Shown: positions 11,411-58,503 of the stretch, piece after piece
How the letters are laid out: the number at the start of each line of letters is the position of its first letter
How positions within the stretch are numbered: the first letter of the stretch is position 1
NCBI RefSeq assembly: GCF_009925085.1
Contig: NZ_JAABNR010000001.1
Location: 248,001-312,000, forward strand
Length of the DNA: 64,000 bases
Reading direction: 5' to 3'
Origin: Stagnihabitans tardus
Lineage (GTDB): Bacteria; Pseudomonadota; Alphaproteobacteria; Rhodobacterales; Rhodobacteraceae
Notes under the pieces: model-generated
Seen by the model: the letters and a program-made list of their open reading frames with translations, nothing else
Database searches by the model: none
What the model was told of the DNA's origin: nothing
Made by a program: the position numbers and the translations under genes

Positions 11411-11719
11411 GGCCGCCGGGGGACGCCGGGGCTGCCGCCCCGGACCCCGCCCAAGCCGGGGGCTGCCGCCCCGGACCCCGCCTGGAGGGACCCGCGGGGC
11501 CCCTCCAGACCTCCCCCGGGATATTTGTGCAAGTATGAAAGACGAAGGGCGCCCTGTTTGAGGCGCCCTTTGCATTTTCAACTTGGAAAAAATATCCACG
11601 GGGATTTTCAAGGGGAGCGTGCTCCCCTTGAAGCGGGGGGTCCGGGGGGCGGCAGCCCCCCGGCTTCCTCCGGGAGGGGTCAGTGGCATTTCATGCCTCT
11701 GACCCCTCCCGGACCCCGC
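11411..11719. repeat. convergent intergenic region with GC repeats and two CAAATA elements
   Basis: 309 bp between two convergent operons. It holds two near-identical copies of GGGGCTGCCGCCCCGGACCC (about 11428 and 11462) and a GGAGGGACCCGCGGGGCCCCTCC hairpin. There are two copies of the CAAATA element, one per strand (11513-11541 minus, 11575-11603 plus). The AAGGGGAGC-GT-GCTCCCCTT hairpin (11610-11629) and a second hairpin GGGGGGCGGCAGCCCCCC follow. The whole 11575-11660 block recurs at 58383-58470 and, diverged, at 50704-50785. No gene is seen. Confidence 0.7.
11545..11575. terminator. factor-independent terminator
   Basis: AAGGGCGCC (11545-11553), an 8-nt loop and GGCGCCCTT (11562-11570), followed on the plus strand by TGCATTTT. 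It ends the polar amino acid transporter operon. The minus strand lacks a run of U, so it is mainly plus-directed. Confidence 0.75.
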
Positions 11720-12559
11720 TCAGACCATTTCGGCCTCGGCCGCGCGGCGGCCTTCGGCTTCGCGGGCCGCTTCCAGGGCCGCAGCCCGGCGGCGGCGGAC
11801 TTCGTAGATCAGCGCGGCCACCAGGGTCGCGGCGATCAGGAGGAAGGCCAGGGCGTTGATCGAGGGCGTGATGCCCGAGCGCACTTTCGAGAAGACATAG
11901 ACCGTCAGCGTGTTCTGCGTGCCCCTTGTAAAGAGCGTCACGTTGAAGTTCTCGATCGACTGGAAGAAGGCAATCGCCGCCCCTGCCCCAAGCGCCGGGT
12001 AAAGATGCGGCAGAAGGATGCGCCGCAGCACCTGGTTGTGGCTCGCGCCCAGGTCCAGGGCCGCCTCTTCCAGGTTCTGGTCAAAGCTCTGCAACCGCGC
12101 CAGGACCAAAAGCATGACGAAGGAGGCGATATAGCTCACCTGGCCCAGCACGCTCAGATGCAGGCCCACCGGCACCGAGAGCTTGTTCCAGAACAGGATG
12201 GTGGAAATCCCGATCACCGCCCCCGGCGCCAGGATCGGCGCCACCATGAAGAAATACAGGAAAGACCGCGACCAGCCCGAGATCGAGTTGATCAGGATCG
12301 CTCCCGCCGCTCCCAGCGGCACCGCGATGGCCACCACTGCCAGCGCCACCCAGATCGTGTTGCCAAACGAGGTCCACATCGTCCCGTCGTTCCACAGCTC
12401 GACGAACCATTGGCTGCTGAAGCCCTTCCAGGGATAGACCGAGGGCGTCTTGTTGTTGTTGAAGGCCGCCCCGGACATGATCACCAGGGGGACGAGCAGG
12501 TAGAACAGGAAGCTGCCCATGTAGATATGATAGAGGAGCTTGCGCATCTTGTCGGTCAT
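11720..12559 (-). CDS. polyamine-type ABC transporter permease (PotC-like)
   Basis: A 279-residue inner-membrane permease of the spermidine/putrescine family. EEAALDLGASHNQVLRRILLPHL is the EAA loop (about 165-187). LTVYVFSKVRSGITPSINALAFLL is the conserved C-terminal PotC segment. The tail EVRRRRAAALEAAREAEGRRAAEAE is an unusually long charged cytoplasmic extension. It is last in the operon (binding protein, ATPase, PotB, PotC), 12 bp after potB. Substrate is not certain; PotBC-like permeases also serve 2-aminoethylphosphonate or other cations. Confidence 0.88.
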   Translation of the reverse strand: MTDKMRKLLYHIYMGSFLFYLLVPLVIMSGAAFNNNKTPSVYPWKGFSSQWFVELWNDGTMWTSFGNTIWVALAVVAIAVPLGAAGAILINSISGWSRSFLYFFMVAPILAPGAVIGISTILFWNKLSVPVGLHLSVLGQVSYIASFVMLLVLARLQSFDQNLEEAALDLGASHNQVLRRILLPHLYPALGAGAAIAFFQSIENFNVTLFTRGTQNTLTVYVFSKVRSGITPSINALAFLLIAATLVAALIYEVRRRRAAALEAAREAEGRRAAEAEMV

Positions 12560-45034: not shown

Positions 45035-45235
45035 GTGTTAACCTTTTGATGTCAGAACAGAAAAAGAACATCCGGGGGCATTAACGCTTTTCCCGGACTT
45101 ATCCACAGGCAACCTCCCCCCGGCCCGGCTTTCCGCCGCCCCGGGGCCCGCAATGTTAAGCGCCCATTAACCATCGGCCACCGATGTTGGACTTGTAAGC
45201 CGGGCCAGAAGGCCTTGCCGCAAGGATGGGATCCC

Positions 45236-47281
45236 ATGACCGCGACATTGCGCACTTTGCCCCAGGGGACAGAAGTCCACCCGCTCCACCGCGAAATCGC
45301 CCCCGGCGGGCCGGTCGGTGGGGGCCTCATCGCGGGCCAGATCGGCGGGCCGGTCGCGGTCGCGGGGCGCGCCTTGGGCGGTCCGGTGGGCCAGGTGCAC
45401 GGCCTGACCGGCGGCCCGGTCTCTCCGGTCGGAGGGCCCCTCCGCCCTTTTGTCCATAACCCCCAGAGCTTTCCGGCTCCGGGGGCGGAACTCCCCGAGG
45501 CGGAACAGCGTCTGGCCCTTCGGCTCTTGCGCGAAGGCGTGCTGGCGCCCCATGCGCTGTTGCAGGGCCTGGCGCGGCTCTCCGAACGTCCGGGCGGGCG
45601 GCTCGTCGACCTGCTGCTCGACCAGGGCCTGGCCGAAGAGGGACCGCTTTTCGCCGCCCTGCACCGCCTGACCGGGATCGGCCCGGCCGACCCGCGCCTG
45701 ACGCCCGACCCGCGCCTGATCGACCGGCTCGAGGCCAGCTTCTGCCTGGCCGAGCGCATCCTGCCGCTCCGCCAGATCGGCGATGCCACGCTGATCGCCG
45801 CCGCCGACCCCGAAAGCTTCGCGCGCCTCGCCCCGCGGCTCCAGGCGATCTTCGGCAAGGTGCTGCCAAGCCTCGCCCCGGCCATGCGGATCGAGGCCGC
45901 GCTCCTGGCCGCACGCGGGCAGGCGCTGGCCCATTCGGCCGAGACCATGGTGCCGGTCCTGGACAGTTGCCGCACCTATCGCAAGGCCAGCCGCACGGCC
46001 CTGCGCGGGCTCGCCATCGCGGGGGCCGTGGCGCTGTTGTTCATCCAGCCGATCCTCGCCGCGCTAACGCTTTGGGCCGTGGTGACCCTGGTCCTGGCCA
46101 CCGGGATGAAGGTCGCGGCCTTCATCGCCTCGCTGAAGCCGATCCAGAGGCCCCAGCCTGCGACCCTGGCCCGCCTGCCCGTGGTCTCGGTCATGGTGGC
46201 GCTTTACCGCGAAAGCGACATTGCCTCGCGGCTGGTGGCACGGCTGGGGAAACTGGATTACCCCAAGGACCTGTTGGACATCTGCCTCGTCGTCGAGGAA
46301 GAGGACCAGATGACCCGCAAGGCCCTGGCCCGGGCCGACCTGCCGGGCTGGATGCGGGTCGTCGTGGTGCCGGGGGGGCGGGTCAAGACCAAGCCGCGCG
46401 CGCTTAACCATGGGCTGACCCAGTGTCGCGGCCAGATCATCGGGGTCTATGACGCCGAGGACATGCCCGACCCCCAGCAGATCCGCCGCGTGGTCGCGCA
46501 TTTCGCGGGCGCAGGCCCCGAGGTCGCCTGCCTGCAAGGCGCCCTGGACTTCTACAACCCGCGCAAGAACTGGCTCGCCCGCTGCTTCACCATCGAATAT
46601 GCGGGCTGGTTCCGCGTGATCCTGCCGGGGCTGGAGCGTCTGGGGATGCCCTTGCCCCTGGGCGGCACGACCCTGTTCTTCCGCCGGGATATCCTCGAAC
46701 GCCTGGGCGGTTGGGATGCCTGGAACGTGACCGAGGATGCCGACCTGGGCATGCGCCTCGCGCGGCGGGGCTATCGGACCGAGATCCTGGCCTCGACCAC
46801 GCTCGAGGAGGCCAATTGCCACGGCCTCGCCTGGGTCAAGCAGAGGTCGCGCTGGGTCAAGGGCTACATGATGACCTGGATCACCCATATGCGCCACCCG
46901 GTGACGCTCTATCGCGAGCTGGGGTTCAAGGCCTTCCTGGGCTTCCAGATCCTCTTCCTCGGCTCGCTGAGCCAGGCCCTGTTCGCGCCGCTCCTTTGGG
47001 GGATGTGGGGGCTGATGTTCGGCCTCGCCCATCCCCTGTCGCCCTGGCTCGGCGCTAGCGGGGTCCAGGCCCTGACGGCGGTCTTCATGCTCTGCGAGGT
47101 CTTGAACATCGGCATCGGGGTCCTGGGGCTGAAGCGGTCGGGGCAGAAGCTGTCCTGGCTTTGGGTGCCGACGCTGACGGCCTATTTCCCCTTGCAAACC
47201 TTCGCCGCCTACAAGGCCGCCTGGGAGATGCTGCACAAGCCCTTCTACTGGGACAAGACCACCCACGGCGCCTTCCACTGA
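45236..47281 (+). CDS. glycosyltransferase family 2 with N-terminal MshEN/GspE-N domain
   Basis: A 681-residue membrane glycosyltransferase. The first 70 residues hold five GGPV-type motifs. A GspE/MshE N-terminal domain follows (LRLLREGVLAPHALLQGLARL to about 220). Then come two helices near 255-295, a GT2 catalytic domain (VSVMVALYRESDIASRLV; YDAEDMPDP as the DxD-like site; TEDADLGMRLA; QRSRWVKGYM) and a C-terminal membrane region of 3-4 helices. QxxRW marks a processive synthase of the cellulose/XagB-like type. The MshEN domain is a known c-di-GMP binder in pilus ATPases, so signalling control is plausible. AAGGA precedes the ATG. Product unknown. Confidence 0.8.
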   Translation: MTATLRTLPQGTEVHPLHREIAPGGPVGGGLIAGQIGGPVAVAGRALGGPVGQVHGLTGGPVSPVGGPLRPFVHNPQSFPAPGAELPEAEQRLALRLLREGVLAPHALLQGLARLSERPGGRLVDLLLDQGLAEEGPLFAALHRLTGIGPADPRLTPDPRLIDRLEASFCLAERILPLRQIGDATLIAAADPESFARLAPRLQAIFGKVLPSLAPAMRIEAALLAARGQALAHSAETMVPVLDSCRTYRKASRTALRGLAIAGAVALLFIQPILAALTLWAVVTLVLATGMKVAAFIASLKPIQRPQPATLARLPVVSVMVALYRESDIASRLVARLGKLDYPKDLLDICLVVEEEDQMTRKALARADLPGWMRVVVVPGGRVKTKPRALNHGLTQCRGQIIGVYDAEDMPDPQQIRRVVAHFAGAGPEVACLQGALDFYNPRKNWLARCFTIEYAGWFRVILPGLERLGMPLPLGGTTLFFRRDILERLGGWDAWNVTEDADLGMRLARRGYRTEILASTTLEEANCHGLAWVKQRSRWVKGYMMTWITHMRHPVTLYRELGFKAFLGFQILFLGSLSQALFAPLLWGMWGLMFGLAHPLSPWLGASGVQALTAVFMLCEVLNIGIGVLGLKRSGQKLSWLWVPTLTAYFPLQTFAAYKAAWEMLHKPFYWDKTTHGAFH

Positions 47282-47341
47282 GGCTTGCGACAGGGTCACG
47301 GAGGCCCCCCCCCAAAGGGCCATCAAGAGCCATTCTCTGCG

Positions 47342-47650
47342 TGTCGGAGGGGGCCGATTTTCCGAAGGAAAATCGGCCCCCTCCGACAGGACGCGGATTT
47401 TCCTGCGGAAAATCCGCGTCCTGTCGGACCCCAGCAGCAAAACGCAAACCGCAAGCCCGCGCCGCCCGGGCCGCAGGCCAGGGCGGCGCCCTCCGCGAGG
47501 GACTGGATTTTTCAAAGAAAAATCCAGTCCCTCGCGGACCCGCTTCTTCTTCGGACATGGGGGTTGGCGGTGGCCGATCTTGCCCTTGGCAAGATCGGCC
47601 ACCGCCAACCGGTCGCGGATTTTCCTGCGGAAAATCCGCGACCGGTTGGC
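47342..47650. repeat. array of five perfect 22-23-bp-stem hairpins
   Basis: HP1 47342-47388 (22-bp arms, loop GAA), HP2 47382-47428 (22, TGC), HP3 47492-47538 (22, AAA), HP4 47562-47610 (23, CTT) and HP5 47604-47650 (22, TGC). All arms are perfectly complementary. Each arm ends toward the loop in a variant of GATTTTCC/GGAAAATC, while the outer 14 bp differ between hairpins with full compensation. HP1/HP2 share the 7-nt TCCGACA and HP4/HP5 share the 7-nt GCCAACC, so within each pair the outer stems are mutually exclusive. A sixth, shorter stem (47459-47467 with 47481-47489) lies between. The array occupies the 372-bp gap between convergent genes and ends 4 bp before the gntR stop. Confidence 0.92.
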
Positions 47651-47653
47651 CCC

Positions 47654-48289
47654 CTACCTCAGCTTCAACTCCCCCGCATCGACGCGCAACCGCGTCTCGT
47701 AGGCCCGCGAGATATGGACCTTCAAGGCCTGGTAAGCCGCCTCGCCGTCCCGCGCCTCGATCGCCGCCACGATCCGGTCATGCTCGCCGATCGCCACCCC
47801 ATCGCGCCCCTCGGCGGCAAAGGAGGTCGTGGCCATCAGGGCCATCGACCGATGCACGAGGTCCAGCTGCTGCACCAGGAAGCGGTTGTGGCTCGCCAAA
47901 TGGATCAGCCGGTGGAAGCGCTTGTTGGCCCGCGAAAGCTCGCGCGGGTCGCCGCCGACCTTGGCGCGGTCCTCCTCGACCATCGAGCGCAGAACCCGCA
48001 CCTCCTCCTCTGTCGCATGCCGCGCCGCAAGCCGCGCGGCCAGGCCCTCCAGCTCGGTGCGCACCGCATACAGTTCCGCCAACTGGTTGTGATCCAGCGA
48101 GGCCACGATCAGGCTGCGGCCATCACGGGTCACCATGGCCTGGGTCTCCAGCCGCTGCAAAGCCTCGCGCACCGGGGTCCGGCTGACGCCGAACCGCTCC
48201 GCCAGCTCTGATTCCACCAGCCGGTCGCCCGGGTGATAAAGCCCCCCCTCGATCGCCTCGAGGATCAGCGTATAGGCATCCTTCGCCAT
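47654..48289 (-). CDS. GntR-family (FCD) transcriptional regulator
   Basis: A 211-residue FadR-type regulator. The winged helix has GDRLVESELAERFGVSRTPVREALQRLE (about 21-48); the FCD ligand domain shows FHRLIHLASHNRFLVQQLD and EHDRIVAAIEARDGEAAYQALKVHI, with Asp/His residues of the metal-bound acid pocket. ATG 48289 follows GGGGGCGAG; the frame extends to 48382 but without family match. The regulated genes are not evident: it diverges from a HAD phosphatase gene. Confidence 0.88.
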   Translation of the reverse strand: MAKDAYTLILEAIEGGLYHPGDRLVESELAERFGVSRTPVREALQRLETQAMVTRDGRSLIVASLDHNQLAELYAVRTELEGLAARLAARHATEEEVRVLRSMVEEDRAKVGGDPRELSRANKRFHRLIHLASHNRFLVQQLDLVHRSMALMATTSFAAEGRDGVAIGEHDRIVAAIEARDGEAAYQALKVHISRAYETRLRVDAGELKLR

Positions 48290-48408
48290 CTCGCCCCCTT
48301 TTTCCGCCACCCTAAGCCCTGATCCGCCCCCCCGCAACCGCCCGGGCGCGCCCGGACCTCCACCAAGCCCCTTCCCAGCCACCGCCCAATCCGCTACCCC
48401 TGCGCCCC

Positions 48409-50703: not shown

Positions 50704-50860
50704 TTTCATCTTTTCCCAAATATCCACGGGGTTTCCAAAGGGGAGCGTGCTCCCCTTTGGTTGGGGGGTGCGGGGGGCGAAAGCCCCCCGCTTCCGCCGG
50801 TCGGAGGCAAGGGCGCCAGCCCGCAGCAGGCCGACCGGCAAAAGCGAGGGCTGCCGCCCC
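50704..50860. repeat. CAAATA element with AAGGGGAGC hairpin, convergent gap
   Basis: A plus-strand CAAATA element (50704-50731) is followed by the hairpin AAAGGGGAGC-GT-GCTCCCCTTT (50737-50758) and a GGGGGGCGAAAGCCCCCC hairpin (50772-50789). A GCCGGTCGG/CCGACCGGC pair lies around 50797-50834. This is the third copy of the cassette at 11575-11660 and 58383-58470. The remaining DNA to 50960 shows nothing recognisable. Confidence 0.65.
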
Positions 50861-58159: not shown

Positions 58160-58503
58160 TCGGTCGCGGGTGGAGAGGCGGGGGCGCTGCCCCCGTGCCC
58201 CCGGGATATTTGTGCAAGTATGAAATCAGGAAGCACAGCGCCAAGCTGAGCGCGGCTTGTCCTTCATACTTGCCCAAATACTCACAAAAGGCGCATCGCC
58301 CAGGCTCGCGGTTTACCTTTCAATTTGGCCCAAATACTCACTGCCCTTTTCGACCACAGCCCCTCCCCCAGACGCGCCCAGCCTTTCAACTGGCCCAGAT
58401 ATCCACGGGGATTTTCAAGGGGAGCGTGCTCCCCTTGAAGCGGGGGGTGCGGGGGGCGGCAGCCCCCCGATTGCGGGGGTGCGGGGGCGGCAGCCCCCGC
58501 TTC
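58160..58503. repeat. convergent gap with four CAAATA elements
   Basis: 344 bp. A GGGGGCGCTGCCCCC hairpin precedes a minus-strand CAAATA element (58200-58225). Three plus-strand elements follow (58262-58283, 58317-58341, 58383-58410). The last continues into ATTTTCAAGGGGAGCG-TGCTCCCCTTGAAGC and a GGGGGGCGGCAGCCCCCC hairpin, nearly identical to 11590-11660. A final GGGGGCGGCAGCCCCC copy lies at 58482-58498. This is the densest repeat cluster of the window; no gene is seen. Confidence 0.75.

What the first reader, a model, noticed from the sequence alone, without database searches (positions are those of the whole stretch)
47342..47650. Five-hairpin array with fixed geometry and pairwise 7-nt overlap
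Seen directly: five perfect inverted repeats with arms of 22, 22, 22, 23 and 22 bp and 3-nt loops. The loop-proximal 8 bp are conserved (GATTTTCC/GGAAAATC and variants), but the outer 14 bp differ completely while staying fully paired. HP1/HP2 and HP4/HP5 each share exactly 7 nt, so their outer stems compete. Compensated variation argues for selection on structure, or for a replication mechanism that copies one arm from the other. Ordinary terminators do not come in such series, and perfect 47-nt palindromes are normally unstable. Possibilities: a strong bidirectional transcription barrier between convergent genes, substrates of a structure-specific nuclease, ssDNA-templated mobile palindromes, or a family of long double-stranded RNA stems.
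Basis: seen in the sequence. Interest (0 to 1): 0.88.

Follow-up and report, generated by a model that had tools for sequence, protein, structure and literature searches.

The report
Self-copying hairpins at gene ends
Three double hairpins sit just after a gene's stop codon in a Rhodobacter-like bacterium, and they belong to a small family in which the two arms of each hairpin change together, apparently because one arm serves as the template for rewriting the other.

Summary
The five perfect 22-23 bp, 3-nt-loop hairpins at 47342-47650 are real. They form three tandem units, each a 22-bp stem followed by a second stem, all in sense with the GntR/FCD gene, whose stop codon ends 3 nt before the first unit. 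They belong to a dispersed family for which my paper searches found no description: 31 full-length places in this genome, 28 in sister species Rhodobacter sp. KR11, none in the 99 other genomes of that search (strict filters). Of 65 members read, 42 have an in-frame gene end within 60 nt upstream in sense (33 at 0-7 nt); none has one within 60 nt on the other side. Stem sequences vary but stay Watson-Crick paired (1320 WC, 15 G-U). In 19 orthologous stems 52 base pairs changed on both sides, 20 on one side. At the divergence measured in neighbouring genes, a pair-evolution model needs arm-to-arm copying (lnL -290.6 versus -351.7). Best reading: sense-strand 3'-end hairpins whose palindromy is maintained by quasipalindrome template switching; the 7-nt overlaps look like fold-back extension of the second stem. 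The RNA function is inferred.

The parts
47604..47650 (-). Unit A, stem 1 (HP5): 22-bp perfect stem, loop 3; begins 3 nt after the TAG stop of the GntR/FCD gene
   Evidence: R1 hit 55.5 bits
47562..47610 (-). Unit A, stem 2 (HP4): 23-bp perfect stem; its outer arm is the neighbour's arm (7-nt overlap 47604-47610)
47492..47538 (-). Unit B, stem 1 (HP3): 22-bp perfect stem, loop 3
   Evidence: R1 hit 50.5 bits
47459..47489 (-).
   Evidence: (I9)
47382..47428 (-). Unit C, stem 1 (HP2): 22-bp perfect stem, loop 3
   Evidence: R1 hit 59.6 bits
47342..47388 (-). Unit C, stem 2 (HP1): 22-bp perfect stem; shares 47382-47388 with unit C stem 1
47654..48382 (-). GntR/FCD-family regulator gene (start codon uncertain) whose stop precedes unit A
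45215..47281 (+). Family-2 glycosyltransferase gene with an MshEN domain (start uncertain), convergent with the GntR gene
11663..11717 (-). Second family member in the window: 21-bp stem 1 with one A.A mismatch, 6 nt after a stop codon, followed by the common stem 2 and stem 3
   Evidence: R1 hit 74 bits

Best explanation
The array is three copies of a 3'-end element. Each copy is GGG(G) + stem 1 (TCC...GGA, 21-22 bp, 3-nt loop, sequence free) + GG + stem 2. It lies in sense in the 3' untranslated region and as a rule starts a few nt after a stop codon. Shown: the family, its sense orientation and position, its restriction to two sister species in the genomes searched, and arm changes that are mirrored in the other arm. 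Inferred: (a) when a point mutation makes the palindrome imperfect, the replication fork copies one arm from the other (quasipalindrome template switching), so the two arms evolve together at close to the neutral rate; (b) the same fold-back synthesis, overshooting in stem 2, copied the neighbouring arm and left the 7-nt overlaps in units A and C; (c) selection keeps a stable hairpin after the stop codon because it shapes or protects the transcript's 3' end.
For: Position: 42 of 65 members have an in-frame gene end within 60 nt upstream in sense (33 at 0-7 nt), 0 of 65 within 60 nt on the other side, random positions 175 of 4000. Shared sites: 19 one-to-one ortholog pairs used. Pairing: 13-member alignment, 20 of 21 pairs change on both sides, 0 on one side only, 97.4% of cells paired, 0 of 500 shuffles as high; 9-member alignment, 19 of 22, 98.0%. 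15 G-U of 1335 pairs in the folds. Orthologs: of 380 pair positions 305 same, 52 changed on both sides and still WC (41 transversion-type, 11 transition-type), 8 WC<->G-U, 12 WC<->mismatch, 3 mismatch<->mismatch. Fourfold sites in genes beside these loci: 53 transitions, 191 transversions of 789 sites, d about 0.40, the same spectrum. Model at d 0.3-0.5: lnL -351.7 without copying, -290.6 with copying at 20 times the site rate. Private arm sequences in 14 of 14 ortholog pairs that differ at positions 4-12. Loop TTC in L335 against GAA in its ortholog L348, the spacer inversion described for template switching (passages of PMC8604942). KR11 keeps an imperfect version of unit C (by eye).
Against: The model has a simple form (single steps, no double mutants, no site variation); without copying it reaches a similar fit if the true divergence were about 2 (lnL -294.5), so codon constraint at fourfold sites would weaken the case. 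G-U (15) and A.C/C.A (11) mismatches are about equally frequent, which gives no support for selection on the sense RNA in particular. A mismatch near positions 14-16 is kept in many members, which pure copying would erase. 23 of 65 members have no gene end called within 60 nt (2 of them with short flank). Terminator-like sites in 47100-47900: 4 against 1.2 +/- 1.2 in shuffles, weak. No transcript data.
Confidence: 0.6

Rival explanations
1. Ordinary RNA selection: two independent mutations per pair, with selection on the RNA stem, and no arm copying.
For: Strong covariation is what RNA selection gives too; the position after stop codons in sense fits an RNA role; a conserved internal mismatch looks selected.
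Against: G-U pairs are 15 of 1335; 52 two-sided against 20 one-sided changes at a fourfold divergence of about 0.40; the no-copy model is 61 log units worse at that divergence.
Confidence: 0.2
2. Mobile palindrome (REP/RAYT, IS200-like or MITE) that inserts after stop codons.
For: Dispersed copies; presence/absence at two sites (G000 L280:8259 and L109:8875 have it, the KR11 orthologs do not).
Against: Y1_Tnp absent in 4 of 4 genomes while the control rings in 5 of 14; most arm sequences are distinct (50 distinct 9-mers among 65), unlike fresh copies; many sites are shared between the two species. Other transposase types were not searched.
Confidence: 0.07
3. Bidirectional intrinsic terminator for the convergent gene pair.
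For: Convergent gap; the subfamily TCCAAGAGAAAAGCC... carries A-tract, GC stem and T-tract (by eye).
Against: Terminator scan weak; in other subfamilies the T-tract is in the 5' arm; many members lie in tandem gene pairs.
Confidence: 0.1
4. Source of small dsRNAs that act on other genes.
For: 22-bp perfect stems suit double-strand-specific RNases (recalled, not tested).
Against: Arms match little else: 3 and 10 places of 14 nt or more against 30 and 22 for random control 21-mers, in 864 kb and 1.15 Mb.
Confidence: 0.02
5. Assembly or fold-back artefact.
For: Perfect palindromes are a classic artefact.
Against: Inside a 424-kb contig; the orthologous gap of KR11, another assembly, holds related hairpins.
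Confidence: 0.01

Closest known systems
Quasipalindrome-associated template-switch mutation (E. coli; PMC7202029, abstract and introduction seen; PMC8794818, abstract and passages seen; PMC8604942, passages seen)
   Same: Arms of imperfect inverted repeats made perfect; loop (spacer) inversion; two-sided changes without intermediates.
   Different: Described there at single hot spots, in yeast coding genes and in RNA genes; here a dispersed 3'-end family with arms of 21-22 bp. In the rRNA data 61.0% of instantaneous compensatory changes were of the transition type (passage); here 11 of 52, in line with this lineage's fourfold sites.
REP / GTAG- and CGTC-tagged palindromic repeats (PMC3733652 and PMC12306157, passages seen)
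   Same: Short extragenic palindromes, high copy, often paired or grouped.
   Different: REP stems mostly 6-13 bp with a conserved tag and frequent G-T pairs (passages); here 21-22 bp, arms not conserved in sequence, few G-U, no Y1_Tnp.
Intrinsic terminators / 3'-UTR stabilising hairpins
   Same: Stable hairpin right after the stop codon, sense orientation.
   Different: No consistent U-tract behind the stem; two stems in a fixed order; perfect long stems.
Short GATTTT...AAAATC gene-end hairpins of the same genus (seen here)
   Same: Same core as in four of the five hairpins; near gene 3' ends; often in pairs.
   Different: Arms of about 8-10 bp in the relatives read; much wider distribution (14 of 16 genomes of the genus).

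Membership tests
REP element with RAYT transposase | Y1_Tnp (PF01797) gene in the genome | tested here: not met
   0 of 4 genomes; control rings in 5 of 14
REP element with RAYT transposase | conserved GTAG/CGTC tag beside the stem | tested here: not met
   flanks are GGG(G)-TCC and GGA-GG (by eye)
Intrinsic terminator | GC-rich stem followed at once by a U-tract | tested here: inconclusive
   4 sites against 1.2 +/- 1.2 in shuffles; one subfamily has the arrangement inside the stem
Intrinsic terminator | transcripts end there | not testable with these tools
   no RNA data
Template-switch (quasipalindrome) evolution | two-sided changes outnumber one-sided ones beyond what point mutation allows | tested here: met
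   52 against 20; model lnL -290.6 against -351.7 at d 0.3-0.5, but -294.5 without copying if d were 2
Template-switch (quasipalindrome) evolution | loop inversion between orthologs | tested here: inconclusive
   one case, L335 TTC and L348 GAA
Rfam RNA family | match above gathering score | tested here: not met
   only two tRNAs in the window; sub-threshold hits are microRNA-like chance matches

The most novel reading that the evidence does not exclude
A gene-end element whose inherited trait is self-complementarity and not sequence: the host actively rewrites one arm from the other at these sites (by a process more efficient than ordinary quasipalindrome correction), so that each gene keeps a perfect double-stranded tail while its letters drift freely.
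Probability: 0.15. Interest if true: 0.85.

Novelty: new variant of a known kind. Interest (0 to 1): 0.6.

Why it matters
Whether compensatory changes in stems come from selection on RNA or from templated mutation in DNA is an open question. A family of about 30 long, nearly perfect palindromes per genome, with orthologs in a sister species and a measurable neutral rate beside each, makes that question countable in nature and testable in a culturable, non-pathogenic genus. It also warns that strong covariation alone does not prove selection on RNA structure. The 3'-end position gives a defined set of genes in which to look for an effect on transcript ends or stability.

Tried and rejected
Rejected or weak: RAYT/IS200 mobility; trans-targets of the arms; Rfam families; an origin of the arm changes by conversion from other members (14 of 14 differing ortholog pairs have a private arm 9-mer; this does not exclude donors outside the 65 members). 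A search with the array region (47200-47720) in the plasmid collection gave one weak match to the glycosyltransferase end only; the member at 11540-11725 matched two Paracoccus plasmids over its stem 2/3 part only, so that part is wider spread than stem 1. My first model run allowed only transition-biased mutation in its restricted comparison; the fourfold sites then showed a transversion-rich spectrum and I reran it. Paper searches: motif letters (3 unrelated papers); none lists a paper that describes this family, within an open-licence library only.

Limits: members were first found by eye in hairpin lists and 13 of them built model R1, so the 65 are not independent of it. Of 66 full-length rows I dropped one weak one (L352:221-276, 25.6 bits); 26 further rows were opposite-strand duplicates. 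The genome counts used strict filters and scored only 56 or 19 candidates per genome. Ortholog pairs: 19 were used; array loci with unclear one-to-one relations (window 47342-47650 with L260, L323 with L259, L354 with L352) were left out; three pairs of unequal length were read over the outer 14 positions only. Gene calls are my own simple ORF and GC3 rule.

Full report
What is there. The five inverted repeats are exactly as reported, and a sixth, slightly imperfect one at 47459-47489 completes a regular pattern: three units of stem 1 (22 bp) plus stem 2 (14-23 bp), at a spacing of about 110 nt (D1). Read on the minus strand, the sense of the GntR/FCD gene, unit A begins 3 nt after the TAG stop; units B and C follow. 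Ten Markov sequences gave no perfect arm above 13 bp, and both strands fold with z of -15.0 and -19.3.

The core. GATTTTN{3,9}AAAATC occurs at 15 places in the 4.59-Mb genome, with 0 for the reversed control. In the genus it is found in 14 of 16 genomes, at up to 63 places, with controls of 0 in 15 of the 16. In the relatives read its arms are about 8-10 bp, and by a simple gene rule most of the 48 loci with both neighbours called lie in convergent (29) or tandem (16) gaps. So four of the five hairpins combine a genus-wide gene-end core with much longer arms.

The long-arm family. In the sister species Rhodobacter sp. KR11 the same GntR/glycosyltransferase gap holds a 21-bp and a 14-bp perfect hairpin with other arms, and an imperfect unit that looks homologous to unit C, with the same TGTCGGA. 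Of the 80 orthologous GntR loci fetched, the gene end was found in 75; besides KR11, one (L199) had a perfect arm of 14 bp or more in the next 500 nt or less, of unrelated sequence. Hairpin lists over 864 kb of this genome and 1.15 Mb of KR11 gave more members of one form: GGG(G)-TCC-stem-loop-stem-GGA-GG followed by a second stem. A scan for the flanks alone, without asking for pairing, gave a separate group with 17-18 of 18 outer pairs in both species (5 in G000, 11 in KR11) and none above 14 in 400 kb of G009. A covariance model built from 13 members found 40 matches in this genome (31 full-length places, 9 opposite-strand duplicates), 34 in KR11 (28 and 6), and none in the other 99 genomes of that search. 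A search of one genome for nearly every genus of the family found only this genome (1 of 295). Both used strict filters and scored few candidates per genome.

Position. Of 65 full-length members read (34 and 31), 42 have an in-frame gene end within 60 nt upstream in sense, 33 of them at 0-7 nt; none has one within 60 nt on the other side; random positions give 175 of 4000. Two members had too little flank to test. Neighbours of an earlier set of 27: 13 convergent, 8 tandem, 4 other, 2 not called. In KR11 one hairpin (L258:14687) carries the gene's stop codon in its loop.

Arms change together. In the 13-member alignment 20 of 21 pairs vary on both sides and none on one side only; 97.4% of cells pair; 0 of 500 shuffles reach this. 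In the 9-member one it is 19 of 22 and 98.0%. Folding all 65 gives 1320 Watson-Crick and 15 G-U pairs; 29 of 65 are perfect when paired from the ends; a mismatch around positions 14-16 recurs. Nineteen one-to-one ortholog pairs cover 380 pair positions: 305 same, 52 changed on both sides, 8 Watson-Crick to G-U, 12 to a mismatch, 3 between mismatches. Of the 52, 41 are transversion-type and 11 transition-type. Fourfold sites in genes beside these loci show 191 transversions and 53 transitions of 789, divergence about 0.40: the pairs change with the same spectrum as neutral-like sites. A 16-state pair model fits at that divergence only with arm-to-arm copying (lnL -290.6 against -351.7); without copying it needs a divergence of about 2 (lnL -294.5). 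Arm sequences are mostly private (50 distinct 9-mers of 65; a private one in 14 of 14 differing ortholog pairs), which speaks against overwriting by other members. One ortholog pair has loops TTC and GAA, an inversion.

Turnover. One orthologous pair is identical (L280:82 and L294:10248); two sites of this genome have no hairpin in KR11 (L280:8259, L109:8875); at one site KR11 is perfect and this genome imperfect (L258 and L108).

Mechanism. Template switching at imperfect palindromes makes arms perfect and can invert the loop (PMC7202029 abstract and introduction; PMC8604942 passages; PMC8794818 abstract and passages). It explains mirrored changes, few G-U pairs and perfect arms. Unit B and most KR11 units lack the third copy (by eye), so the overlap is an extra and not part of the element. 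What keeps the element after stop codons is inferred: a stable 3' end of the transcript. Equal numbers of G-U (15) and A.C (11) mismatches and the weak terminator scan do not prove it.

Known or new. The mutation mechanism is known, and so is the general kind (gene-end palindromes). The family, its sense position after stop codons, its long free-sequence stems and the ortholog record of two-sided changes were not found in my paper searches. I file it as a new variant of a known kind.

Noticed in passing
window 11607-11632, 50735-50760, 58414-58439: Another repeated hairpin, (TTCAA/CCAAA)GGGGAG-CGTG-CTCCCC(TTGAA/TTTGG); it is stem 3 behind several family members and also occurs alone.
   Followed up: partly
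L098:762-992 and L098:13288-13512: Tandem copies of CTGGAGAGGGG-TCG/CGC-type hairpins (three at 102-nt spacing; two at 200), another gene-end hairpin repeat of this genome.
   Followed up: no
L097:4682, L106:17542, L267:12131, L271:4956, L273:16989, L278:4298: A family of near-perfect hairpins with GTAGGGTG(C/G)G motifs in this genome (one also in KR11 L250:13790), distinct from the family studied; GTAG recalls REP tags, not tested.
   Followed up: no
L258:14687-14733 (KR11): The hairpin overlaps the end of an open reading frame and its loop supplies the stop codon TAG.
   Followed up: partly
fourfold sites, this genome against KR11: Transversions outnumber transitions 191 to 53, mostly expected from GC-rich third positions, but worth a look.
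   Followed up: no
L061/L062 (G003): Four short hairpins with TTTTC(TGC/GCA)GAAAA cores in a row with 7-9 nt linkers.
   Followed up: no
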